Positions 462 to 54,920 of a stretch of DNA of 64,000 bases are shown one piece after another. The stretch is from Arbacia lixula (Eukaryota > Echinodermata > Echinoidea > Arbacioida > Arbaciidae). The notes under the pieces are model-generated. The model was not told the DNA's origin. It did not search any database and worked only from the letters and a program-made list of their open reading frames with translations. Where the stretch lies: NCBI GenBank assembly GCA_963669155.1, contig OZ022583.1, forward strand, positions 12,594,359 to 12,658,358, read 5' to 3'. How positions within the stretch are numbered: position 1 is the stretch's first letter; the number at the start of each line of letters is the position of its first letter. Both the position numbers and the translations under genes were made by a program.

Positions 462-557
462 TTAACGCCCTCTTTTAGCATTTCATGTACAAAATGTGAC
501 TTTTCCACCAGTAATACATAGAAAAACAGTACATAAGCTGGCACCCAAAAGGGTTAA
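462..557. mobile_element. TTAA-bounded mini-element, family 1 (candidate copy)
   Basis: A 96 bp segment begins TTAACGCCCTCTTTTAGC and ends GGCACCCAAAAGGGTTAA, with TTAA at both edges. The right end fits the family consensus (TTTGGCACACAAAGGGTTAA) best seen in copies at 18-25 kb. The interior is diverged, so membership rests mainly on the ends and the length. TTAA duplication is the known target-site signature of piggyBac-type transposases; the assignment to that superfamily is inference. Confidence 0.45.
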
Positions 558-5049: not shown

Positions 5050-6003
5050 GGCGTGAGGATAATGATGATGGAGAAGAAGAAGTAGGAAAAAATGACAAAA
5101 TGGAGGAGAACGGAGATAAATGGAGGCGAGAGGACCAGTAGAGGAAAAGGAATATGAAAAGAGAAAGAAAAGCTGAAAGAAAACAAGTTAAAAGGCGATT
5201 GCAAAAACAATGATTCAAATGAGAAAAAAATAGGAATACCGGAGAGAAGAGAATTAACAAAGAAAGTGCACTTTCAACGGTTAAAAAGCAGAGGGGAAGC
5301 TAACAGACGACGTAGAAGTAAGTTTAACTTTGACGCGGAGACAAAAAAGAGTCGAATAGGCAAAATTAGTTAACCGAACAGACAATATATGGAGGACGAT
5401 AAGAAGAAGCATGGGGAAAAAACCCACAGAAGAATATTTTGAAAGAGGGGGAGATGAAACAATACGAACATTTAAGAAGGATTAGGAAACGAAGGTGGAG
5501 AAATAATAGTATTAATAGTAGGAGCAGGGGAGGAGGAGTGGAAGAAGAAGAAGGAGAAGAAGGAGAAGAAGAAGAAGAAGAAGAAGAAGAAGAAGAATAA
5601 GAAGAAGAAGAAGAAGGAGAAGGAAGAAGGAAAAGATGGAGAAGACGACGAAGGGTAAGAAGATGAAGAAGAGGAAATAGAGAAAGAAAACAAAAAAGAC
5701 GACGACGAAGAAAAAGAAAAAGAAGGAGAAGACGAAGAAGAGGAAAAAGTGGAAAACGTAAATGAAGAAGAAGAAGAAGAAAAAGTAGAACATAGAAGGA
5801 AAAGGAGAAGGAGAATGAGGAGGAAAAGAGGAAGAAGAAGAAAAGAAGAAAAAGGAATAAAAACACGAAAAATACGAAGAGAAGAAGACGAAGAACAAAA
5901 AAAGAAGGAAGGAGAAAGAGAAGTAGAAGGAGAAGAAGAAGAAGAAGAAGAAGAAGAAGAAGAAGAAGAAGAAGAAGAAGAAGAAGAAGACGAAGAAGAA
6001 GCG
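5050..6003 (+). repeat. Polypurine (GAA/GAG) tract, about 950 bp
   Basis: The plus strand is overwhelmingly A and G, with (GAA)n runs at about 5548-5616 and 5930-5990 and degenerate AAG/GAG elsewhere. Open frames across it on both strands encode only Lys/Glu or Phe/Ser/Leu runs and are translations of the repeat. Long mirror-symmetric purine tracts can form triplex (H-DNA). The tract stops abruptly at a CpG-rich segment at 6003. Confidence 0.9.
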
Positions 6004-6210
6004 CTCTGCCTTCATTTACGAGTCTGGGCCGAGCAGAGCAGGCGCACTCGGGCGCACCTCGGGGCTACTCGGAGCATTTATCGATCGATTACGAGACAAC
6101 AAGTGATAACACGACACCAGCCGATTCATTACCGTTCCATCGCTCAACCAGCCGCTATCTTCAGCCCCGCATCCCGGGAGCGACGCTCCGAAACTTTTCT
6201 TATATAAGCT
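6003..6210 (+). promoter_or_regulatory. CpG-rich segment with canonical TATA box
   Basis: Immediately after the purine tract the composition changes to GC- and CpG-rich (GCGCTCTGCC, CGGGCGCACCTCGG, CCCGGGAGCGACGCTCCG). This ends at a perfect TATA consensus TATATAAG at 6201-6208, inside the palindrome CTTATATAAG. A start site would be expected near 6230-6236. No transcript is identifiable downstream, and the palindrome leaves direction ambiguous. A core promoter is inferred from composition and motif only. Confidence 0.25.
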
Positions 6211-14175: not shown

Positions 14176-15946
14176 ACTACATAGACATGGTGTACAATCT
14201 TACGACGATCAGTATAAAGGCTATGGTAAATATAAGGTATTTCGTGTTTATATTTGAAATATAATCAGGAGAGAAGTTAGGTAGCCGATACAACATTTCG
14301 GGTGAGCTTAGCAGTACACTTCTTCATACTTCATTCTAACATCAACGACAGAGCATGCAGTTCAAAAGTGACAGCTTTTGAATGCCCTAATGTTGCTTTG
14401 ACATCTAGCTGTAACAGTCCCCAATACAAGTCATGATAAACATAGTTTTGTTAGATATACATTGTATCCTTTCTTCCGAATTTCAAAACGTTTCATGCTT
14501 TCTTTCTTTTAAAACACACCTATAGATAAACAACACGCATGAGTCTCTCAATGTGCAGGTTTACATAAATTATTTTATAAGGCATGGGATTGATCAAAGG
14601 ACAAATCAAAGGAAAGTTCATCACGATTCATCACCACGTCTAATCTTATAATAACCTAGAATCCGATATCTGCATTTCGTTAAACGATACATTTCAAGGA
14701 CCACTTGAGTAAAAAAAAATCCATTAAAAATGACATTAAAGAGTTTTAAAGAATATTATCTATTACTGTATAGTAAATACAAGCCATTTGTGTGTTATGC
14801 CTGCAAAAACGATAGACTGCTTTGAAAGATAGTCAAGATCTACTCGCTAGTCAACGAAATATGAGTTACATAAAAATTGGACTGCATAATTATTCGCTTG
14901 TTGTACACTCGTTGGACCGTGGTCTTAACACGCTGACCAGCGAAAAATCCTGGATTAACCAGACGAACGGGTTAAAGGGAGACGTTTGGTTCTCTTTAAA
15001 TTCACACAGGTTAGCTTTAAAGACAGGGTATCCTTTGAAAAAAAACAGAAGTCAAGAAAACTGGCATGGTTTACCAGCACAATGCATACAATATAAAATA
15101 AAAGTCTCACAGTCATTGCTTTACAAACATTTTCAGGAAAAGTGGAACACCATCCTTGCTTACGTTTGAAACGTCTCATTTCGTAACGACCATATTTACA
15201 TTAACATTGCAGCGGCCAGCGGCGTGGTGCTCGCATTGCACGCGCGCCTTGCACACATTACCGCGGACATTCATAGACCTCTATACGGAGAATTCTGAGA
15301 ACAGCGATGTATGCTGAGTGCAGTCTCGATCTCTAGGCCACAGGAACCGTGGAGGCCTTGGACGACCCGTCTAAAACCAACTCGAAATCTTCAGCTCAAT
15401 ATAAATCCACCTATAATTCAATTTATGGCTTTGGGAGGGATGAACTATTTGTTCCATTTCCCGTGGTTTAAAAACATTTTATTTTTGTTTTTACCAGCAA
15501 AAGGGCAGCACTGTCTTTACTATGTTGTCACTCTAGAATCCAGGAACATATTTTAGCCGGTTTCTGATAAGAACCTCATACGGGGATCTGTAAAATGGCA
15601 TTAGTGCAACCTTTAGTAGAGTCGTTTAAGTCGTGACACGTTTAGCCTTTCCATTCGATCCGGCTAGGAATACCATCATCACGCAGCTAGGGGTGCGTGC
15701 CCCCCGCTCTGCACCGGCCACGCGCGGGCCCGGTACGCTGCGAGTAGCTCGCCGTGCTCCCATAACCGACATGGGGCACACACAAGTCGTGCCATGGCAA
15801 TTCGAGTAGTTCTTCTTTTTTTTACTTCTTTTACTTTGGTTTACATAGTCTGTCTCCTTCAAACGTTCCTCCAGATATATCACATTATTGTGTAATATAA
15901 GAATAAAACACGTTTTCAACCTGTACTCTCTTTGAAGTGTTATGCT
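14176..15946. other. Unique sequence including a short GC-rich block
   Basis: Mostly AT-rich unique DNA. Two CpG-rich islands of about 100 bp stand out, at 15211-15275 and 15680-15790 (containing CGCGCGGGCCCGG-like words relative to either strand). Neither is linked to a recognisable exon. The 115-codon frame at 14822-15169 has no domain character. Confidence 0.4.
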
Positions 15947-16116: not shown

Positions 16117-17020
16117 TTGACGTTGTTACAGTGTGCGATCTTCCAAAACATAGCTTTAAATTGCAAGTCAACGGCATGATACGTGATAAATGTCTTTTTA
16201 AAAGCACATTTTACAGCTTAACTTGCTATCACATTATTTTGTGTGTGTGCATGTTTTGTGGGTTACCATATTAATATCTCAGAGGCGTTTAGACATTCAC
16301 TCGTGTGAAATCATTTTGAGAGAGCGTGGGCCAGTGACATATGGGACTCGACGTTTCGGGCGGTACGTTCCGCCCATCGTTCGGAGAATGACGAGGCGGG
16401 TTACAGCAAGATATGGTTGCTATCGTTCTCCAGATCGCAACACACCCACCGAAACGCTGAGTTTTCAACGGGACCTGTTTAAAGACACAGTGTCCTTTTT
16501 GCAGGTCAAAAAATAAAAAAAAATTGTTAAAACCACGGTAAATGGAGGAAAATACTGTAACAGAAGTTTCTTCCCAATACTAGAATTGGAACTGACTTTA
16601 AGCAAAATTATAGCGCTCGCTAAACGTGCTAGATTTGGAGGAAAATGTAGCCTGGGGACCGGAGACCGCTGTGCTCTATGATCCGCACCGGTCCACTCCA
16701 TAGTACATGCGTACAATGGGAGCAATGCCGGCATCACGTGCTGACTGTGACTATATTTCAGACGTTAACAAGGATAGTTCCTCAGTTTTTCTGAAAATGT
16801 TCGTGAAGTTATGAAGCTATGACTGAAATTTCATACACGTTTTCGCTAGGGTACGGAGTATACTGCTGATTAGTGCCGAGTTTCAGCTATTTGTACTGCC
16901 TTGAAGATTCTAGAATTTGGAAGAACTGTCTGGGCCAGGTGTTATTTACATAGAAAAAATGTAACAATCCTAAGCTAATTAGCATAACAAAAGAGGCATT
17001 GATTGTGAGTGTGCCTGTGG
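16117..17020. other. Unique sequence, no feature seen
   Basis: Unique DNA of average composition. A 7 bp inverted pair GGACCGG/CCGGTCC near 16657-16695 is too short to interpret. Confidence 0.4.
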
Positions 17021-18336: not shown

Positions 18337-18420
18337 TTAACCCTTTGTGTGCCAGACGAAATGTGTCTGATACGATATGTTACAGTTGGGTAAATGTAAC
18401 TGCGGCACTCATCGAGTTAA
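18337..18420 (+). mobile_element. TTAA-bounded mini-element, family 1 (intact borders)
   Basis: 84 bp with TTAA on both sides. Left end TTAACCCTTTGTGTGCCA, right end CACTCATCGAGTTAA. An internal GTTACA ... TGTAAC pair can fold. This is the best example of the family's left end and opens the dense cluster that continues to 24.8 kb. Confidence 0.7.
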
Positions 18421-19139
18421 CTCGTGTTGTGTGAGACAGAATGCCGCTTTACATGACCTGTGTGTATAATTGATGCATTGATGTTATAGTGTGGCACATA
18501 CATGGGTCACTTCTGATGTCCCATGAAGAATCGTGCTCTATGAAACCCGGCCTTGCAGCATGACGGTGAAACATGCAGAGTTGATTCCTTCTGTGTTAGG
18601 CACAATGATGCTCTGTTGGAACTTTGGCGCACGTACCACACACAACTGGTCAATGATCCACTCAAGGGTATTTTTTTTTAAAATAAATATATTCATGAAT
18701 ATTTTCTCCCTGTTGGCCTGGAGACGACCATTACTGCTAGATTGGAGAAAAATGGACGATAACCATTATAGTTATCATCAACCATCTCCGTGTCAAATCT
18801 TGTCTATAAAAGCCACATTGAAATGAAAACTTCGTCCGTCCACTGGCGCGAGAAAGTTTGGGGTGTTGGGGGGAAAATCTTTCAGTACCAGTCCAAGAAA
18901 AGCCCATTGACTTATTACACATTTCAAGCACCTATAGTACTAAGATGGTTAAACACTACCCTGAGAAGGGTGTGGTATAGTTATTGCGTTTGTCCACATA
19001 ACTATTACAGCGAATAATTTAAATCACCCAGTCTTGAGATTCTGCGATAAAACTCAATCATGTTATGACAGCATCAGATGACTTATTTTTCGCCTCATGA
19101 AGTTCAGTCTCACTTCAACCATCGTTGTCAATACGGACC

Positions 19140-19230
19140 ATCATCTCTGTACATGCCAATGGTGCGTTTTTGCACACATGATACATATAAGCCTCATTGA
19201 GGCAGGTAATGCATGGTACTTCAAGGGTGA
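19140..19230. mobile_element. Family 1 mini-element, decayed borders
   Basis: Contains the internal family blocks CCAATGGTGCGTTTTTGC, CACACATGATACATATAAGC and, near the end, ACTTCAAGGG. The TTAA borders are lost by mutation. It is followed directly by another copy in the same orientation. Confidence 0.5.
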
Positions 19231-19318
19231 ACTCGTTACGCCCAACGATGCATTTTTGCATAGCTTATACGCACAAGACCCATACTGCCCTACTCTGACA
19301 AAAGGAAGCAAGTGACAA
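19231..19318. mobile_element. Family 1 mini-element, decayed borders
   Basis: Carries CCAACGATGCATTTTTGC, TTATACGCACAAGACCCATA and CTGCCCTACTCTGACAAAAG. The last block forms one arm of the 34 bp inverted repeat with 19499-19532. Confidence 0.5.
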
Positions 19319-19532
19319 ATCAATCAAATCTGGTTATTGGTACTCTTAGATTGTACCCATCATTCCCTACGTACGGCCAAAATCTGGACAAGAAATATTC
19401 ATCTTGCTGCAAGATATTCAATCTAACATGATGTGGTGTTGCACTGATACCAATGCAAGTGACAGACACATTTTGCTCATTTCCAAGAAAAGTCTCTTTT
19501 GTCAGTTGCTTCCTTTTGTCAGAGTAGGGCAG
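19285..19532. repeat. 34 bp inverted repeat with 180 bp loop
   Basis: The left arm at 19285-19318 starts CTGCCCTACTCTGACAAAAG; the right arm at 19499-19532 ends CTTTTGTCAGAGTAGGGCAG. They pair with one mismatch in 34. The arms include the ends of two oppositely oriented family 1 copies plus about 15 bp beyond them, so either the element is longer in this subgroup or an inverted duplication occurred. Confidence 0.8.
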
Positions 19533-19569
19533 CATAGGGCTGCGGTATGTTTGGCACACAAAGGGTTAA
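19499..19569. mobile_element. Family 1 mini-element, right border intact
   Basis: The right border is TTTGGCACACAAAGGGTTAA (19550-19569), the clearest version of the family's right end. The interior includes CAGCATAGGGCTGC. The left border overlaps the inverted-repeat arm and no TTAA is visible there. Confidence 0.55.
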
Positions 19570-20041
19570 AATTATTTTCAACGATGGTGAACTGCGCATG
19601 AATGTGATGACGTCGACACCCAGTAGGAGGGGCTTAGGAGCGTAGAGGAAACGATGTGAGCCTGGTGAGATAAAAAAACTGAAATTTAGAACGAACTAGT
19701 CTGGCTTTCAGGCCGTCGGGTATTTCTAAACCAAACAATTCAATGAAGGGGTCTGGCGGCCGTAGACTAATCATTCTCATTTTCTTCTCTAGGACTGAGA
19801 AAAGAGGAGAAATGATACAGTGATTAGTCTTAGAGTACTCGGATGGGATCAGAAATGTCCATGAGTCTGGAGGACAGGCGAGGAATGGAGAGGTGAAAAC
19901 ATAATGAGAAAACAGAATCATCATCTCAATCTGACGTCCACAATTGCATATTGAGAATGATCATGATTGCCGACTGTCTTCACTGTTGACATCGTGCAAC
20001 CATGACCTTGTTACGAATTGCCAAGGTGACTGAGAGCGACG
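19570..20041. other. Unique sequence, no feature seen
   Basis: Unique DNA between two mini-elements. No gene or repeat noticed. Confidence 0.4.
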
Positions 20042-20135
20042 TTAAACTGTATGTGCTGTTGAGGTATTTTTTTGCACTGGTGTAATACACACTATTCCCA
20101 TAGGGCAGTATGGGGTATAGCAAATAAGGAGTTAA
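20042..20135. mobile_element. Family 1 mini-element
   Basis: 94 bp between TTAA at 20042-20045 and TTAA at 20132-20135. Internal family blocks are TTTTTTTGCACTGGTGTAAT, ACACACTATTCCCATAGGG and AAATAAGGAGTTAA. The left end lacks the CCCTTT block, so the exact left border is uncertain. Confidence 0.55.
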
Positions 20136-20202
20136 AACACGGACTCTGTGGTTGGTTAAAGGGAGTGCCTATGGAAGCACGTTTCACTACAGTAGGTCAC
20201 GT

Positions 20203-20372
20203 GACCACCGCAGACGACAGGATCCGATCATTCGTGCGACTCCTGCGACTTGGCTTAATCGCAAGGCCCGGTCTGGAGATTTGTGCAAGAATGTGACGTA
20301 ATATGTCCAGATGTAGGTCCTTACGACTGCAGGATCGCAGCAAAATACTGCCGATTGCGATGGCCTTAACAT
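20203..20372 (-). repeat. Dispersed repeat, copy 2 (inverted)
   Basis: Reverse-complement relative of 15947-16116. Diagnostic shared blocks on the minus strand are AAGGCCATCGCA, GGGCCTTGCGATT and GTCGCACGAATGATCGGATC. About 4 kb separates the two copies, in opposite orientation. Confidence 0.6.
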
Positions 20373-20784
20373 AATTATGAGAAGTTATTGGGCGTGACGT
20401 GACTCGACTGGCTTGAAACAATGTCTGAATGTGGAGGGTTGCGATGAAACACATAGCAGCCCGCACATGACGTCCCTTCGATTGACGATCTTTAACTGCT
20501 GGTGTTAAGCTAGCCTTGGTTACGGACACTAACACAACAACAAAAACGCAGTCCCAGTAGAGCCGCTTTCAAATCGCGGAGGTACCGTGCTATGGCATAT
20601 GGTTAAAAAAACCACTTGCCATCGTGAGGTTGTTGATGATTCAAAATATGGTATTTGCATGACAACAATCGTAAAAAATGTGAAAAACGCCTCAATGGAC
20701 ACCATCCTACCGTGCCCAGGAGAATTACCTAGAGACAAGGTAGAAGAAGATAGTAAAGTTTGTTTTCCACGGGCCCTTAAAAAA

Positions 20785-20878
20785 GGCAACCACCAAGAAA
20801 TGCAAAAAAGAAAATGCAAGAAAAAACAAAACTATTATTATCCAACAAAACTATTCAGGGCATTTCTTGGTGATTGCC
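20785..20878. repeat. 19 bp inverted repeat hairpin
   Basis: Arms GGCAACCACCAAGAAATGC (20785-20803) and GCATTTCTTGGTGATTGCC (20860-20878) pair with one mismatch around a 56 bp A-rich loop. Could be a small transposon relic or a structured transcript. No TA or TTAA border was identified. Confidence 0.7.
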
Positions 20879-21108
20879 TGAAAGGCACCATATAAGAGAC
20901 AAGCTATGAGTGATTTGGACTCATTCCACTTTAATCACCAAATACTATATCATCCTTGAGACCAGACTAACTCGAAGCACAAGGAATAGAACTATCTTTC
21001 AATGCTCTAGCCAGCTGTTTCGTGCCGTGTTTTTAAAGAACAGTGCAGCATAATGTTCCAAAATAAGACAGCAGTGCACTGAGATTGTGACACGGGATTG
21101 TGCAACCC

Positions 21109-21181
21109 TATAACCCATTCTGTGCAAAGCAAAATGCTGCCCTTTGGGACATATTGGCCCGGATTCCCAACGGTGGTTTAA
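21109..21181 (+). mobile_element. Family 1 mini-element (decayed left border)
   Basis: Starts TATAACCCATTCTGTGCAAA and continues AGCAAAATGCTGCCCTTTGG, matching the copies at 22560 and 23229. It ends at TTAA 21178-21181. Length is about 73 bp. Confidence 0.55.
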
Positions 21182-22559
21182 CTTAAACCACGTACTAAAC
21201 CTAGACTTACTTTGTGATGCGCAATACAAATCATTTGATGCTGTCACAAAGTCATTGATTTTCATCACAGAATAACACGGATTGGGTGATATGATTTTTT
21301 CCCTGTGATTGTTATGTGGACAAACTCAACATTCCCTAGTGATTCCTAGTACAATATCAATCACAATTTATGTTGTTTGATATGGCGTCCATAAAGTTAG
21401 TCCAGGTTTAGAAAACTTTTTGCATTAAACCACTATTTAGGATACGGGCCAATCCGCACTAGTATTACCTTTTGTGCAAAAAATGGCTCAATGGCATATA
21501 CATTAATAAATTAGGACAGTAACATGTAGTAATGTAAGCTACGCAGATTTCAAATTGTCTCAATTATCGTATCCCCTTATCTCGCTACGTCTTATCACTA
21601 GTTACGCATAAATCCCACCGAACAGTAGTTTGACCGGCACATAATGGAAACACATTGTATAAAAATGATTTTCTAAACAAAATTGATGAATTCCACGTTT
21701 AATTTGTTGACACACGGACCGTTTGTCTTAACTCTGTATCTGCCACATAGGATTTTTTTTTCGCAAATCATACACGCACATCCCAACGAGTTACATTTGT
21801 TTGACACTGAACGAGTTAAGAGGTATCGTGGCTTTGAACGTTGCAACCTGCTCCCGCCGGGAGAGTGAACCCTGCAGCCCTTGCAACTTTGTGCTGGAGG
21901 GCTCGACTCGTTGAACCCAATTAGTGAGAAGGTTTAACAGGTTAAACGTCATAATACTCGATACATGGTGATAAACAAGTGTCTTCGAACACATGCGTGA
22001 CGATAAAAGATGTTTTCACTGTGTTTTCCCGCGTCCCGACCCCAGCGATCACTACCGATACTGCTTTCCGATAGTTCTCTGTATTTCCATTCACATTTTT
22101 CTGATGTTTGTTTGTCTTCAAAGCGTTTTCCCGTACTTACCGTCTATACAAGAAATAGTTAGGTTATCTGGTATAGACATGTCACTTAGAAATGAAAATA
22201 CAATATTTGTATATTTGTTTGCGTTATCAGCGTTATCACACACGTCATACACTCGCAATTACATTTATCACGATGATACATATAAATCAATCAATAATGT
22301 ATTTTGATTGTTAGGTGATTTGTTTGATTTAGATATTCTCACCATTTCTAGTAAATGTTGATATAACATAGAACAACACTTTAAAAAAGGAAAAACATCA
22401 GCAAACGAAAATGGAACTTTTCAAATGACGCAGTGACCTCTAATCTGTGGTACTGGGAGACTTCAGTATCACATCGTTGTCACTGCCATTGCTGGCGTAA
22501 GTGAGGGAAAACAATGAAAGTCATTGAATTGCCAAATGTGTGTCAGCTAATGACTCGCA
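21182..22559. other. Unique sequence, no feature seen
   Basis: About 1.4 kb of AT-rich unique DNA. The frame at 21993-22307 (104 codons) is AT-rich with no domain and no splice context. Confidence 0.4.
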
Positions 22560-22640
22560 TTAACTCATTCTGTGCCAAGCAAAGTGATGCTCTGTGGATT
22601 ACGGGTGTATCATTGGCGTCTAAATTCCATAGCGGGTTAA
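22560..22640 (+). mobile_element. TTAA-bounded mini-element, family 1 (intact borders)
   Basis: 81 bp, TTAA at both edges. Left TTAACTCATTCTGTGCCAAG, internal GCAAAGTGATGCTCTGTGG, right CCATAGCGGGTTAA. Same subgroup as 21109 and 23229. Confidence 0.65.
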
Positions 22641-23228
22641 GGATTTAGTTCCGATCGTGATTTACTTGGTCGACGTTGGTCAAAGGCTACCTTTATGTCT
22701 GTTAACTGGCCCTGTCCTCATTGCTAATGCTGTATTTTTTCAGTACTTCATCAGAGAAGAGGGTCTTTTTTATAGACATGTTGGCTAAGTCATTGCAGTT
22801 GCTTTCTTCCAATGGACATGATGTAGGTCATGGTAAGATATTTTCATTACCAGAAACTCAGATAGGCGAACGAAATCATTACAGACACTCGATATTTCTT
22901 CTAGTTTGGTTTCTTTATTTTTTTTTTATCCAAAAGTAGTAACACGTTATAAGGATCGAAGCACACGTTTTCTCCTTTACTTTCTATTGTCATAAAACGT
23001 GTTTTATGTATATGTAGTACGATTTCGATATGGCAATTGTAATGGATGAAACTACATGATTACAGTCATGAACATGATCTGTCAAAGTGAACAAACCTTT
23101 TCAACGTGTCCGATTAAGTCAAACCAAAACACGATTATCAGTTATTGGAAATTGGCTAGTTGGCATTTTAGGCTCATCTGTTTGATGTTCAACAATACAA
23201 TTCTGCAAAACAACATTTCCAGCCTTTC

Positions 23229-23307
23229 TTAACCTGTTGTGCACCAAACAAATTGCTACCCTATGGAGTTTGTGTGAATTCCGTGTGCATTGCGCATAAA
23301 GAGCTAA
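23229..23307 (+). mobile_element. Family 1 mini-element (right border CTAA)
   Basis: Left end TTAACCTGTTGTGCACCAAA, internal TTGCTACCCTATGGAGTTTG and GTGTGCATTGCGC, right end ATAAAGAGCTAA with a single change from TTAA. 79 bp. Confidence 0.65.
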
Positions 23308-24149
23308 TCCTCATCAAAGTTTTTAGGTTCCTCAAGTCTCCTCTCTCAACCCGGTCGTGACAAAAAACAAATCTTCAAAAAGTGCGATAAACCCGCCTCA
23401 TCCGATCAGGCGAATCGGAAGCCCATGTAACTCTCACTTTCTGTCCAGCAAATCTCAGTCCTTAACCCCCCATGTCAGCTCCAATTTGGCGCCCACTCTG
23501 TTCCTATTAAACCGCCCAATTTGATCTGTCAAGGTTATGGCCTTCACAACGTGCCTTTCATGGACCGTAAAGAGACGGTCCTTTTTACAAACAGTAGCAA
23601 GTGTTGCGATAATTCCAGAGGTATATTAGATTGGAGGGCGCGTCTTTGTGCGCGGAGGAACACACACGTGGGGGAGCACATGCGCACGCACTCGTCAACA
23701 CCCACCCATACCCTCCCACCTATCAAACACACAAACACACACACATGCTCGCCCAGATCAACAGGAACTTACTAACTTCAAAATATACAAATAGAAGAGA
23801 GGTAGTATTCTGAAAGAAACTTTTGTCCAAAATTGCGAGGTTCGTCAGTTGGTTTTCTGATAACTGACTTGAGTCAAAATATGTACTGATAGACCAATCA
23901 ATTTTTTTTTTTTTATCGTACGGGACTTACGTCAGAACTTGAATCAAAGCTCGTTTTTAGAATACTACAGAAGAATTGGAATATTGTTCTTATTGCCGCG
24001 ATGATTCCATAAAGCTGTAATTGAACTATTCAATGATACTTTTTGTATCAATGTTAAGGCCTTGGTCTAAAAGAGGTTCTAAGAAGAACTGGAGAGGATT
24101 GAAAGCTGATTGAGGAAATACGCACCAGGCAAATGCGTTTCTTAGGACA
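23308..24149. other. Unique sequence with short CA and T runs
   Basis: A small CACA patch at about 23723-23745 and a T run at about 23901-23915. No gene recognised. Confidence 0.4.
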
Positions 24150-24379
24150 TACACTACAGCTCAAAGGAATTGGTATCGGGTAAAGGGAAGGGAAGAAAGG
24201 GAAGGATCCGCAGTTTTAAACCGGATTATATTTTGTCTAGTTCAGCATGAAACATGATGCATTAGCCTAAAAAGCATCATGTTTCATGCTGCTGAACTGG
24301 ATAAAATATACCGCGGTTCAAAACTGCGGCTCCTTCCCTTTCCCTTTACCAGATGCCAATTCCTTTGAGCTGTAGTGTA
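24150..24379. mobile_element. Tc1/mariner-like hairpin MITE, copy 1
   Basis: A 226 bp element (24152-24377) flanked by TA on both sides. It is almost entirely an inverted repeat centred near 24265. Ends are CACTACAGCTCAAAGGAATT and its complement. The arms contain poly-purine GGGAAGGGAAGAAAGGGAAG and the block GTTCAGCATGAAACATGATG. The CACTAC...CTCAAA start and TA duplication are typical of Tc1-type elements. Coding capacity is nil, so mobilisation would need a transposase in trans. Confidence 0.85.
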
Positions 24380-24594
24380 GGACAAGAAAGAACGGCTTGG
24401 AATATCTAGCGATGACAAGAAAGATAGAATAAAAGAGGTGAAGATTAAAGAAACGGGTGAGTTGGGTGACCAGTATGAATACATGGATTGCACAGGGAGG
24501 TGCAGATTAGTGGGAGGTGGATCTGATCCAGAAAGTTAGAAACAAAGATTTGTGGCACAACATGATCGCTTAAGTCTTCTGATACGGTACTTAG

Positions 24595-24642
24595 AGAGAG
24601 AGAAAGAGGGAGAGAGAGGGCGAGAGAGAAAGAGAGAGAGAC
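24595..24642 (+). repeat. Short GA-rich microsatellite
   Basis: About 48 bp of GAGA/GGGAGA between the hairpin MITE and the next mini-element. Confidence 0.85.
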
Positions 24643-24688
24643 CTTGGTCCTAGGATACAAACCGATATACGATGCAACATTGAACATG

Positions 24689-24798
24689 TTAATTGTATAA
24701 ACTTTGTATCCAATGGTATCCGCCATTGATGCATTTTTGTACAACTAACACACACGAATCCCGCAGAGCAGCGGTGCATAAGGCACTTAAAGTGTTAA
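24689..24798. mobile_element. Family 1 mini-element (long variant)
   Basis: The family interior is clear: CCATTGATGCATTTTTGT, AACTAACACACACGAATCCC, GCAGAGCAGCGGTGCATAAG, ending CACTTAAAGTGTTAA. TTAA at 24689 gives a 110 bp unit, but the left end does not match the consensus, so the true left border may be nearer 24715. Confidence 0.55.
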
Positions 24799-24817: not shown

Positions 24818-25042
24818 TACATTACAGCTCAAAGGAATTGGCATGGGGAAAGGGAAGAAAGGGAAGGAGCCGCAGTTTTGTCCAGTTCTTTTGTCCAGTT
24901 CAGCATGAAACACGATGGTATAGCCTAAAAAGCATAATGTTTCATGCTGAACTGGACAAAATATACTGCGGTTTAAAACTGCGGCTCCTTCCATTTCTTC
25001 CCTTTCCCTTTCCGAATGTCAATTACTTTGAGCTGTAGTGTA
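24818..25042. mobile_element. Tc1/mariner-like hairpin MITE, copy 2
   Basis: A 221 bp relative of 24150-24379 in near-tandem arrangement, again with TA at both borders (24818-24819, 25041-25042). It differs by the repeated block TCTTTTGTCCAGTT near the left arm and by a shorter purine stretch in that arm. The interior retains the CATGAAACACGATG / CATAATGTTTCATG hairpin. Confidence 0.85.
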
Positions 25043-27540: not shown

Positions 27541-28321
27541 ACTCTCTCCCCTTTTCGCCTCTGTGTAGTGTCTTCTTTCTCTCCTATATATCAATTTTTC
27601 TTCCTCTGATTCATGTACTGCATCTAATCCTCCTTTTTCTTCTTCTATGTCATCTCCTTGTTCTTACCTTCTCCTTATTTATTTGTTGTTATTTTCCTTC
27701 TTCTTTCGATCTTCTTTCGATCTTCTTTCTTCATCTCCTTGTTTTTCTTTTTCTTCTTTATCTTGTACTTTCCGTTCTTATACTTCTTCTCATGTTCCTT
27801 TTCATTGTAATAGTTTTATTTCTTTCCCCTTTTCTTCATCTGCATCTTCTTCTCCTTCATCTTCTTCTCTCTTCTTCTCGCTCTCTCTTCTCCAACACTT
27901 GATCATACTGCATGTCATGCACATTACTTTACCTCCTCCCAACATTCTGTTCTTTTTCATCTTCGTCTCCTTCTCTTTCTTCTTTCTCTTCTCCTTCTTT
28001 TACTTCTCCTTCTTCTTCTTCTTCTTTTTCTTCTTCTTCTTCTTCTTCTTCTTCTTCTTCTTCTTCTTCTTCTTCTTCTTCTCCTCCTTCTTCTTCTTCG
28101 CCTTCTTCTTCTTTTTTCGTCTTCTTCTTTTTCTTCTTCTTCTTCCTCTTCTCCTCCTCCTCCTCCTCCTCCTCCTTCTTCTTCTTCTTCTTCTTCTTCT
28201 CCTTCTTCTTCTTCTTCTTCTTCTTCTTCTTCTCCTCCTTCTACTCCTTTTTCTTCTCCTTCTCCTCCTTCTTCTCCTTCTTCTTCTTCTTCTTCTTCTT
28301 CTTCTTCTTCTTCTTCTTCTT

Positions 28322-28352
<31 letters not shown>

Positions 28353-28410
28353 TTCATCTTCTTCTTCTTCTTCTCTTTCTTCTTCTTCTTCTCTTCATCT
28401 TCTCCTTGAC
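27541..28410 (+). repeat. Polypyrimidine (CTT)n tract
   Basis: CT-rich from 27541 and becoming (CTT)n with CTC interruptions from about 27960 to 28410; the longest pure CTT run is near 28280-28350. The 290-codon Phe/Leu/Ser open frame through it is a repeat translation. It is the same sequence class as the GAA tracts at 5-6 kb and 50.5-51.2 kb, on the opposite strand. Confidence 0.95.
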
Positions 28411-29398
28411 ACCCCACTCTTCCCCCCAATTCTTCATATTGCATGTCATGCTCATTCCCCTCCACCCCCTTACCGCCCCACCTCCCCTATACCCCACCCC
28501 ACCCTCCCTACTCGGTTGAACCACCCTAAGCCAATATCCTTCTACCTCGGTCACTCGCAGGACTGTGTTTTAATTAAACCTCCTCGCACTAGGCAGCCCG
28601 TAAATTGCAAGCCTTTTCCGCTTCTCCTGCTACCCCGCTGAAAATATTATTATCGATTTTCTTTCTCCACCGTCCCAGGACCGTCCCGCATGTTGACTCA
28701 AAAATCCTTTCTGTCCAGGGTTAGGGAGAGAAAAGTTATAGAATCTGGTACCCCCTTTCTCTCTTTTTACGAATCCCCAAATTTTCGGCTGCTGTGGCTT
28801 ACGGCGTAAAATGCTTTTTGGTTGCTCGATGCTCGTATGTCTGACTACAAATGCATCAAAAGAGAGGCGAGTCTTCGACGTTAGGTTCGCAACGGCGCCT
28901 GGCACAGTCTCAGCAGAAACATCACGACACACTCGTTGCGCAACACATTTTCTGGGATCCCGGGATATTGCATTTTATTCCGAGATGCTTTTTCCGTGTT
29001 GTCAATAACTGCATAACTTTGGGCTGGGTGTAGTTACTGGTGCGTGTCGCAAGTGGGGCGAGGCTTTATTGCACGAATATATGGACAATCTTTTTGGATG
29101 AATTGGTCATGAGATCACAGTTTACCATGTATGGGATAGGCATGAAAGCTCATAATTAAATGAGGAGTTTAGATAAATTCATCATTGAAATCAGGTCAGG
29201 TTCACAAACTTAAAAGCATTGTACGCCTTTGTCGTAATCATATTGATTAGATATGCTGTAATTTGATAATGATTGCCAGAATGGATTCGACTCCAAAGTG
29301 CTTGCTTTAATGAGACAAAACATAACTTGAGACATTTAAAAACATTGAGTCAGTAACTCTATACATCGCATGTCGGATAAATCAGAGTTGTAATTCCA
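28411..29398. other. Unique sequence with an unassigned minus-strand frame
   Basis: 28440-28530 is C-rich. The minus-strand frame 28630-28932 (100 codons) has mixed composition and no low-complexity runs, but matches no family I can name and has no clear splice sites. Treat it as non-coding until shown otherwise. Confidence 0.3.
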
Positions 29399-30884: not shown

Positions 30885-31015
30885 TTAAAGGCGGTGTCAT
30901 CCTTGTGTAGACGAAAACGAATCTCGTATACCTTCTGTGCCATTGGTGCATGTCGACACAAGCGATACACAGAAAGCCCAACGAGCAGCAATTGGTCTGA
31001 CGTACAGGGGGTTAA
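30885..31015. mobile_element. Family 1 mini-element (long variant)
   Basis: The interior matches: GTGCCATTGGTGCATG, GACACAAGCGATACACAG, AAAGCCCAACGAGCAGC, ending GGGGGTTAA. TTAA at both sides gives 131 bp, longer than typical. The left part up to about 30925 may be unrelated flank. Confidence 0.5.
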
Positions 31016-31771: not shown

Positions 31772-31843
31772 GGTTTTGCACAGAATGATACACAGCATAC
31801 AAATCCCATAGAACAACACATTGTCTGTCAAACAAAGGGTTAA
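31772..31843. mobile_element. Family 1 mini-element (left border lost)
   Basis: TTTTGCACAGAATGATACAC, CATACAAATCCCATAGAAC and TGTCAAACAAAGGGTTAA match the family interior and right end. The left border is not recognisable. Confidence 0.55.
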
Positions 31844-44480: not shown

Positions 44481-45339
44481 TACTGTGCATGCACCAGTGA
44501 GTTAAACTCATTTTTAGGCCATGTACAGTGGTACATAGACGACTTAAATTCTTGATTGTATATGTGTACAGTAAATGAAGAACCTCTTAACGACAATTTG
44601 CGACAAGGGTGAGATGCAGTCATGAATAATAACATGTAGTTCAACGACCAAAATAGATTGAAACCCGGCCGTGCAGAAAGTTTCTAAACACGAGTATTAG
44701 CATTATTTGTACATGCCCTGCTCTTGAATAGTTTGTAGTTTCTGTGGGTCTGAACCGCCAATATTTGCTAACGTGTTGTTTCACCAGTGAATCGGAAAAA
44801 AAATCTGCTTGATCGAGTAGTAATTCAAATTGACACGACGCATCATATAACAAAACCAAGTCTTGGCCTATATGACTTCCATTAGGTGATAAAGTAGCTA
44901 CTGTCTACTATTATTAAGTAATCGAGAAATAAATGTATACAGAACGAAACGACTGATCGATACTCGTATTACCGTGAGACATCAGTCAGCACATAATTGA
45001 GCCAATGCGTAGTTTCAGAAGGTTACAATGATATGCCATTCATCAAATTGAAGTTTAAAAGTTCAGGACATAAGGTCACCGCAGACACACGATATCGACG
45101 TGATTCTGCCCGCAGAAGTAAGGCCTACAACTGGAAGGGTGACGTCATTTTGTTTTTATATTATGGCTTTGCTCATCTTGTATTTTTGATCCAACCGTTG
45201 ACATTCCTACATGATGTAATATGGTTGCAATAAATTATTATGCGTATCTTCTTTTTGTTTTAAATGGGATGTACGTACAGTCAGAACCCCAACGTCGTTT
45301 ATGCTACAACACGACGGAATGGGATGGTGGAGGGGGAAA
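44481..45339. other. Unique sequence, no feature seen
   Basis: AT-rich unique DNA without gene or repeat. Confidence 0.4.
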
Positions 45340-45382
45340 TACAGCTCCTGCCCCCCCCCCCACCCCCCCACCTGCCCCCCGT
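45340..45382 (-). repeat. C-rich tract
   Basis: CCCCCCCCCC with CACCCCCCCA interruptions. G-quadruplex potential on the minus strand. Confidence 0.8.
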
Positions 45383-45462
45383 GGAGAGATCAATGTATCA
45401 CTCAGATTTCCAATGGCCCATTATGTCATAACAAAAAGAGATGGGTTGGTGCAACTGCTGCC

Positions 45463-45473
45463 CCCCCCCCCAT

Positions 45474-45509
<36 letters not shown>

Positions 45510-45607
45510 ACACACATATATATACACACACATGCTCTCTCTCTCTCACACACACACACACACTCACACACACACACTCACACACACACTCACACACACA
45601 AACACAC

Positions 45608-45667
<60 letters not shown>

Positions 45668-45695
45668 GCACCACACACACACACACACATACACA
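45463..45695 (+). repeat. Poly-C followed by long (CA)n microsatellite
   Basis: C10 at about 45463-45472, then CA array with (CT)n and (TA)n inserts at about 45515-45548. The longest pure CA run is near 45612-45664. Confidence 0.95.
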
Positions 45696-45907
45696 TTCTG
45701 CCCAGCGTCGGATTGCTTTCTGGGTCGGTCAGTAGCACCCCATACAGTCATGCCAGCTAAACGTCATAAGGCCAATCACCGCCAGTCTCTCAGCACCGCG
45801 AATATCTCTCCTGCCACACGGGCACAAGTTCATCCAATCACCGTCACCCCGCAGACGACTTCTTGACTCGGGGTGTCAGCAGAGAGCTTGCCAATGTCAC
45901 CCCAAAC

Positions 45908-54827: not shown

Positions 54828-54920
54828 TTAACTCTTTAAGTATCACATGTGCATTTGCTCACGAAGAACATACACATTTTCCAACAAGTGGCAGTTTGTT
54901 TGACACATAAATGTTTTCTT
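54828..54920. mobile_element. Family 1 mini-element (right border lost)
   Basis: Starts TTAACTCTTTAAGTATCAC and contains GTGCATTTGCTCACG, AACATACACATTTTCC and TTTGTTTGACACATAAATG. The last aligns with the family's right end, but the terminal TTAA is mutated. Confidence 0.5.

What the first reader, a model, noticed from the sequence alone, without database searches (positions are those of the whole stretch)
18337..24798. Cluster of ultra-short TTAA-bounded repeat elements (family 1)
Nine related segments of about 70-110 bp lie in 6.5 kb (18337, 19140, 19231, 19499, 20042, 21109, 22560, 23229, 24689). More copies sit at 462, 30885, 31772, 35706, 49975, 54828 and 59137. Intact copies have TTAA on both sides, a start like TTAACCCTTTGTGTGCCA, an end like TTTGGCACACAAAGGGTTAA, and internal blocks AAAATGCTGCCCTATGGG and GCAAAAATGCACCAATGGC. 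TTAA is the known piggyBac target, but about 75-85 bp is unusually small for a transposable unit. The local density suggests a preferred target region, chain insertion, or a selected function.
Basis: partly seen in the sequence, partly recalled or inferred. Interest (0 to 1): 0.75.

Follow-up and report, generated by a model that had tools for sequence, protein, structure and literature searches.

The report
Ancient 91-base piggyBac-type hitchhiker transposons
These short repeats are old, gene-less passengers moved by a piggyBac-type transposase; at about 91 bases they are hardly more than the two ends the enzyme grips, and this echinoderm genome holds tens of thousands of them.

Summary
A profile built only from copies elsewhere in the genome finds all 16 listed segments and none in 20 shuffled windows. 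Two listed segments (19231, 19499) are halves of one copy split by another 248-bp repeat. The window holds 21 copies, 11 of them in the 6.5-kb cluster.

The family is genome-wide: 968 exact and about 26,500 near-exact ends, an estimated ~90,000 copies. The consensus is 91 bp with 17-18-bp inverted ends. Similarity stops at TTAA, and related copies of one host repeat lack the insert: a MITE that duplicates TTAA.

The left tip (CCCT) fits piggyBac and both tips contradict Kolobok. A young 5.2-kb piggyBac-like element here has one end matching 17 of 18 bases. That end carries a palindrome centred 24 bp from the tip; the MITE's right end has one at 24.5, as do two other piggyBac families here. In piggyBac and piggyBat the transposase's cysteine-rich domain binds a palindrome at about that place. 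So the MITE looks like two transposase-binding ends with almost nothing between.

It is ancient (median 78% identity to consensus). Similar ~100-bp coral elements (CMITE) are published. A new family of a known kind; the cluster is a real local excess of unknown cause.

The parts
18337..18420 (+). family-1 copy, TTAA both sides; its right TTAA is shared with the next copy
   Evidence: profile 30.6 bits; overlap of 4 bases with next copy
   Evidence: profile 21.6 bits; span
19141..19231 (-). family-1 copy, abutting the split copy and sharing one mutated border (TTCA for TTAA)
   Evidence: profile 24.7 bits; overlap of 4 bases
19228..19569 (-). one family-1 copy split in two (19228-19284 and 19533-19569) by a nested repeat; left end TTAACCCTTTGTGTGCCA at 19552-19569
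19285..19532 (.). nested second repeat, 248 bp, inverted ends CTGCCCTACTCTGACAAAAGG, 4-bp target duplication CATA (not part of family 1)
20042..20135 (-). family-1 copy, TTAA both sides
   Evidence: profile 27.1 bits
21111..21150 (+). family-1 partial copy (left half)
   Evidence: profile 20.6 bits
   Evidence: profile 26.4 bits
   Evidence: profile 34.6 bits
22560..22640 (+). family-1 copy, TTAA both sides
   Evidence: profile 29.9 bits; right TTAA read
23229..23311 (+). family-1 copy, right TTAA decayed
   Evidence: profile 37.4 bits
24689..24798 (-). family-1 copy, TTAA both sides
   Evidence: profile 44.4 bits over 24718-24798; outer TTAA read
462..557 (-). family-1 copy outside the cluster
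   Evidence: 15.7 bits, 21.1 bits
   Evidence: 27.1 bits, span
30920..31015 (-). family-1 copy (reader gave 30885)
   Evidence: 44.0 bits, span
31776..31843 (-). family-1 copy, right part lost
   Evidence: 32.3 bits
35706..35797 (-). family-1 copy
   Evidence: 45.9 bits
49974..50069 (-). family-1 copy
   Evidence: 16.0 bits
52998..53049 (+). weak family-1 fragment
   Evidence: 15.2 bits
   Evidence: 35.7 bits, span
54828..54913 (-). family-1 copy
   Evidence: 44.0 bits
59137..59218 (-). family-1 copy, TTAA both sides
   Evidence: 29.7 bits; both ends

Best explanation
Family 1 is an old, non-coding MITE (miniature inverted-repeat transposable element) of the piggyBac superfamily. A master copy of about 91 bp was cut out and pasted into TTAA sites by a transposase supplied by full-length piggyBac-like elements of the same genome, leaving TTAA on both sides. 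Shown: borders at TTAA, a length around 91 bp, inverted ends, very high copy number, unrelated flanks, related copies of one host repeat without the insert, no recent copies among the best matches. Inferred: that the transposase was of the lineage with ends TTAACTCTTAGTGTGCCA; that the element is reduced to the transposase's binding sites, namely one tip at each end plus, at the right end, a palindrome centred 24.5 bp from the tip where the dimeric cysteine-rich domain would bind. The local cluster is an accumulation of independent old insertions, a few of which used the TTAA of an earlier copy; no host function is needed to explain it.
For: 18-mer end: 968 exact matches, 0 for the reversed control; <=3 mismatches 26,860 against 349. 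968 of the 1618 matches of the 14-mer CCCTTTGTGTGCCA carry TTAA directly before it. Of 60 copies chosen by an exact left end, 57 align; the other end is TTAA in 28 of 57 against 2 of 456 shifted positions; of those 28, 15 are 91 or 92 bp long. Of the 40 best genome matches to the consensus 24 run exactly from base 1 to 91. Host repeat around the C1:38450706 copy: 39 other places listed (a capped list), 25 of them aligned through the joint and at least 10 bases past the TTAA, 14 stopping earlier and saying nothing; ten of the spanning ones and one from the 40-kb sample were read, all 11 without the element. 120 matches to the piggyBac transposase domain PF13843. Element at C4:17939547-17944775 and its 97% identical copy on C1: homology begins at TTAA and ends within one base of TTAA; its 5' end equals the MITE right end at 17 of 18 bases. 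Its two open frames match DDE_Tnp_1_7 and zf-Tnp_2, nearest solved structures piggyBat 9e-29 and piggyBac 8e-23. Palindrome (perfect arms >=6) centred 24-24.5 bp from the tip in the MITE right end and in 3 of 8 ends of four autonomous families, P 9e-6; in piggyBac the cysteine-rich domain dimer binds the palindrome at bp 17-33.
Against: The candidate partner is young (97-99.7% between copies) while the MITE is old, so it can be at most a relative of the enzyme that moved it. The similarity is confined to the 18-bp end; inner sequences do not align, and its 3' end matches at only 14 of 17. The right tip of the MITE is CTCT, one base off the published CC[C/T]T rule, though the candidate partner has CTCT at both tips. 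CCCTTT..TGCC-like ends are common in the superfamily (Acropora examples), so part of the match is expected. Only 30 of the 120 transposase matches were read. In 9 of the 11 empty relatives read the TTAA itself has decayed, and they are paralogues, about 73-88% alike, not alleles. The palindrome range was set after seeing some ends; two further putative 5' ends (L056, L057) were not in that test and showed no palindrome, where a looser score singled out only the MITE right end (P 0.0045) of 18 ends.
Confidence: 0.88

Rival explanations
1. The copies are MITEs of the Kolobok superfamily, which also duplicates TTAA.
For: Kolobok makes TTAA duplications and a Kolobok lineage is listed for the starfish Patiria miniata (passages of PMC9587614).
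Against: Kolobok termini are 5'-RR..YY-3'; family 1 begins 5'-CCCTTT and ends AAAGAG-3'. A piggyBac-type element with a 17/18 matching end is present. No search for a Kolobok transposase was made.
Confidence: 0.04
2. The segments are fragments of a larger repeat or satellite, and the TTAA borders are incidental.
For: Two copies lie in a duplicated stretch (L140 and L141 have similar flanks) and some copies stand close together or in tandem (L081, L082, L098).
Against: No two of 20 copies matched each other in their flanks; the flank hits found are to other dispersed repeats elsewhere. 24 of the 40 best genome matches run exactly 1-91. Host-repeat relatives run through without the element.
Confidence: 0.02
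3. The cluster at 18.3-24.8 kb is kept by selection (for example as a regulatory or replication element) and is not just an accumulation of insertions.
For: 11 copies in 6.46 kb against 0.98 expected, Poisson P 8e-9, with no excess of TTAA (41 sites in 6.46 kb, 394 in 64 kb).
Against: The 16 window copies measured are only 62-77% identical to the consensus, in both orientations, some truncated or interrupted. No Pfam domain in 9 of the window's 61 open frames of 120 aa or more (the other 52 were not scanned); no Rfam match. The cluster was picked after the fact. Shared-border pairs account for part of it.
Confidence: 0.06
4. The MITE was moved by another, now extinct or unread piggyBac lineage and not by relatives of the C4:17939547 element.
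For: Only the terminal 18 bp match; 90 of the 120 transposase matches were not read; the MITE is much older than that element's copies.
Against: Of the four families whose ends were found, this one fits best (5' end 16/18 to the MITE left end, 17/18 to the right end; the TTAACCCTTTCCTGCCCA family 13/18; the other two have more than 5 mismatches).
Confidence: 0.4

Closest known systems
CMITE families of Acropora corals (Wang et al. 2010, PMC2872659; abstract and passages seen)
   Same: About 100 bp, TTAA duplications, CCCTTT-type ends of 13-14 bp, related to piggyBac-like elements, tandem arrays, an allele with and one without the insert.
   Different: CMITEs share a conserved 75-bp internal region across families; it was not compared with family 1 here. 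Family 1 is 91 bp, far more numerous by estimate and more decayed. A palindrome at a fixed distance from the tip is not mentioned in the passages seen.
piggyBac and piggyBat transposon ends (PMC7351741, PMC11707139; passages seen)
   Same: TTAA targeting; one end with a palindrome centred about 25 bp from the tip (piggyBac bp 17-33; piggyBat about bp 19-32, derived from '3 bp downstream' of bp 11-16); asymmetric ends. The sufficient piggyBac ends, 35 + 63 = 98 bp, are about as long as the whole MITE.
   Different: Those are transposons with a gene; palindrome sequences differ; family 1 has one palindrome in all, piggyBac one at each end.
Made1 (human mariner MITE, PMC1784062; passages seen)
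   Same: An 80-bp MITE.
   Different: Related to Hsmar, two 37-bp inverted repeats; that it does not use TTAA is recalled.
Kolobok (PMC9587614; passages seen)
   Same: TTAA duplications; a lineage listed for Patiria miniata.
   Different: Termini RR..YY; family 1 has YY..RR.

Membership tests
piggyBac/TTAA MITE | insertion at TTAA with TTAA on both sides | tested here: met
   28 of 57 other ends are TTAA against 2 of 456 shifted positions; host-repeat relatives that span the joint lack the element
piggyBac/TTAA MITE | inverted ends of 12-19 bp | tested here: met
   consensus TTAACCCTTTGTGTGCCA.. / ..TGGCACACAAAGAGTTAA, one mismatch in 18; definition
piggyBac/TTAA MITE | CC[C/T]T tip | tested here: inconclusive
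   left tip CCCT fits; right tip CTCT is one base off; the piggyBac-like element of this genome closest in its ends has CTCT at both tips
piggyBac/TTAA MITE | short, homogeneous, non-coding, high copy number | tested here: met
   91-bp consensus; 21 of the 28 copies with TTAA at both ends are 90-93 bp; ~26,500 near-exact ends; 6 copies in 40 kb of arbitrarily placed stretches
piggyBac/TTAA MITE | autonomous element with the same ends in the genome | tested here: inconclusive
   5.2-kb piggyBac-like element with 17/18 matching 5' end, but no inner similarity and a 3' end of 14 of 17
piggyBac/TTAA MITE | mobilised by a piggyBac transposase | not testable with these tools
   needs an excision or integration assay
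Kolobok | 5'-RR..YY-3' termini | tested here: not met
   family 1 begins CC and ends AG inside TTAA; definition
CMITE (Acropora) | conserved 75-bp internal region shared across families | not tested
   the published 60-bp probe was seen but not aligned

The most novel reading that the evidence does not exclude
The 91-bp element may be a natural near-minimal piggyBac substrate in which one palindrome serves both ends: it lies 24.5 bp from the right tip, where piggyBac's left end has its binding site for the cysteine-rich domain, and 59.5 bp from the left tip, not far from where piggyBac's right end has its own (about 53 bp, derived from the passage that RE bp 34-63 repeat LE bp 7-35). A transposon would then consist of two overlapping transposase-binding ends and no interior at all.
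Probability: 0.2. Interest if true: 0.6.

Novelty: new member of a known kind. Interest (0 to 1): 0.36.

Why it matters
It adds a large MITE family of an echinoderm and ties a ~90-bp MITE to the end architecture seen in piggyBac structures: one tip plus one palindrome about 25 bp in. That gives a concrete, testable lower limit for the length of a cut-and-paste transposon, and suggests that short TTAA MITEs can be matched to their transposase by palindrome position and not only by the terminal bases.

Tried and rejected
Host: the chiton Acanthopleura granulata was considered because of assembly size (606.9 Mb) and dropped; its assembly has 87 scaffolds, the largest 50.9 Mb (passages), here 590 contigs with C1 of 55.6 Mb.

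Idea that the ~249-bp second repeat specifically hunts family 1: it came from a first query that spanned both repeats. Counts do not support it: 1731 exact ends of that repeat, only 10 with the CTCTATG context of family 1 (exact matching, so the 10 is a lower bound). It does use the same CTATG site when it lands there, in both orientations.

Palindrome score allowing mismatches: 15 of 18 ends had P > 0.2, two 0.07, and the MITE right end 0.0045; it did not show the common pattern. Perfect arms of 6 or more were then used. Both are reported.

Density from piggyBac loci: 0 copies in 121.5 kb (30 loci). Not used as background, because in the 9 loci whose element ends were found (L031-L033, L036, L040, L048-L051) most of the stretch is transposon; for most of the other 21 this is not known, so the zero stands as a result against an even density. 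The background used is the 40 kb.

Rows dropped before counts: 5 of the 20 first copies (L064, L068, L072, L073, L079) were left out of the first profile as reversed or rearranged, and one (L080) was turned round; 3 of 60 copies aligned below score 50 and were left out of the end counts; 16 of the 21 window copies went into the window consensus, the split copy and partial ones being left out.

Joined flanks of 37 copies compared with the sequence held: the hits flagged as crossing were within the copy's own place, from tandem neighbours; one copy (L084) showed a usable host repeat.

Pattern for the shared-TTAA junction genome-wide: not completed, so the frequency of chained copies is known only from the window and the 40 kb (2 shared and 1 nearly shared border among 27 copies).

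Text searches: the end sequence is in 0 papers of the library. The listings for TTAA or piggyBac MITEs with mollusc, bivalve, starfish or echinoderm terms were seen as titles and abstract starts; none there describes this family. Repeat databases were not available, so this does not show that it is uncatalogued.


Full report
OBSERVATION. The 6.5-kb stretch was read. TTAACCCTTTGTGTGCCA occurs six times in the window with up to three mismatches, 0.11 expected. A profile was built from 15 of 20 copies fetched from contig C1, none from the window; it finds all 16 listed positions and several unlisted ones, and nothing of 14 bits or more in 20 shuffled windows. With a refined profile (33 copies from other loci) the window has 22 rows, or 21 distinct copies. 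The listed segments 19231 and 19499 are one copy split by a 248-bp repeat. Eleven distinct copies lie in 18337-24798.

GENOME. The window lies in G000, 607 Mb in 590 contigs. The cytochrome oxidase gene of contig C590 has TGA inside (12) and is open under table 9, the code of echinoderm and flatworm mitochondria. Its four AAG codons stand at NHKDI, AGKSE, GIKVF and WSKVQ, its two AAA codons at asparagines, one of them in PPLSSN; that these sites are conserved lysines and asparagine is recalled. So the host is read as an echinoderm. Contigs C1-C20 and C22 are 18-56 Mb long, which would fit a starfish such as Patiria miniata; the species is my guess and was not tested.

COPY NUMBER. The exact 18-mer occurs 968 times, the reversed control 0; the 14-mer without TTAA 1618 times; with up to three mismatches 26,860 against 349. 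Twenty arbitrarily placed 2-kb stretches hold 6 copies, 0.15 per kb, so about 90,000 copies (33,000-198,000 by Poisson limits, my arithmetic). Thirty piggyBac loci, 121.5 kb, hold none; much of that is transposon.

BORDERS. Sixty copies chosen by an exact left end were read. Fifty-seven align to the consensus; the other end is TTAA in 28 of 57, against 2 of 456 at eight shifted positions; of the 28, 8 are 91 bp, 7 are 92, 4 are 90. No two of 20 copies matched each other in their flanks; 7 of the 40 flanks matched other repeats held. Of the best 40 matches to the consensus 24 run exactly from base 1 to base 91.

EMPTY SITES. The copy at C1:38450706 sits in an older dispersed repeat. Ten of the spanning ones and one from the 40-kb sample were aligned; all 11 run through without the element, and TTAA itself is intact in 2.

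AGE. Outside the matched end the median identity to the consensus is 78% (57 copies); the best match over all 91 bases is 91%, the best partial one 97% over 69. Sixteen window copies are 62-77% identical to the genome-wide consensus and have a slightly different consensus of the same 91 bp. The family seems long silent.

TRANSPOSASE. The piggyBac domain PF13843 has 120 matches; 30 loci were read. Ends of four families were found. One family (L054, L055, L058; 97-99.7% identical; C4:17939547-17944775) starts TTAACTCTTAGTGTGCCA: 16 of 18 bases of the MITE left end, 17 of 18 of its right end. Similarity between two of its copies starts at TTAA and ends within one base of TTAA. Its other end, TTAACTCTTAGCCTGCCC, matches at 14 of 17. 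Nothing further inside aligns with the MITE. Two open frames carry parts of the DDE domain (profile positions 2-85 and 150-349) and a zinc finger; nearest solved structures are piggyBat and piggyBac. Whether the gene is intact was not tested.

ARCHITECTURE. The MITE right end carries ACTTGTG-8-CACAAGT, centred 24.5 bp from the tip; the 5' end of the C4 element carries ATAGCG-9-CGCTAT, centred at 24.0. Two further families have perfect palindromes centred at 24.5 on one end; a fourth has one at 35. That makes 3 of 8 autonomous ends at 24-25.5, P 9e-6 under shuffling. Against this: the range was chosen after a first look; two more putative 5' ends (L056, L057) were not in that test and showed none; and the looser score singled out only the MITE right end of 18. 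In piggyBac the cysteine-rich domains bind, as a dimer, a palindrome at bp 17-33 and bend the DNA; ends of 35 and 63 bp suffice (passages of PMC7351741). In piggyBat similar palindromes lie 3 bp inside repeats of the left end, the first at bp 11-16, and none was found on the right end (passages of PMC11707139). The MITE thus keeps an asymmetric pattern in 91 bp. Folded as a single strand the consensus forms a hairpin with z -3.5, as expected of inverted ends.

CLUSTER. Eleven copies against 0.98 expected is far from Poisson (P 8e-9 for that stretch alone); it was chosen because it is dense, and the genome has about 94,000 such stretches (my arithmetic). TTAA is not denser there. Two pairs share a border, and one pair in the 40-kb sample nearly does. 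By end counts the window as a whole is only twofold above the mean (6 against 2.8, P 0.07). The cause of the excess is open.

VERDICT. A new family of a known kind, piggyBac/TTAA MITEs, with coral CMITEs as close precedent.

Noticed in passing
window 19285-19532; L003, L004, L006, L012, L014, L016, L018 and others: A second repeat of about 249 bp with inverted ends CTGCCCTACTCTGACAAAAGGAAGC and 4-bp target duplications (CATA/TATG often; AATT, AATA, CGTA also seen), 1731 exact ends in the genome; when it lands in family 1 it uses the CTATG site, in both orientations. Its superfamily was not determined.
   Followed up: partly
window 24150-24380 and 24818-25042: Two neighbouring foldback repeats (arms 87-93% complementary) flank the family-1 copy at 24689-24798; relatives in L007 and L079.
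   Followed up: no
L031, L048, L055, L036 ends: Four piggyBac-like families each carry a perfect palindrome on one end only, centred 24-24.5 bp from the tip in three and 35 bp in the fourth.
   Followed up: partly
window 15098-15170 and 16757-16885; L094, L091: An old dispersed repeat; 39 further places are listed in the genome for its relative around L084, which served for the empty-site test.
   Followed up: partly
L140 and L141 (C1:34482805, C1:34595246): Two family-1 copies with very similar sequence and flanks about 112 kb apart, probably a duplicated stretch.
   Followed up: no
window, many places (e.g. 5366-6064, 27569-28519, 45215-45760): Long simple repeats give spurious open frames; no Pfam domain in the 9 other open frames tested of 61.
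   Followed up: no
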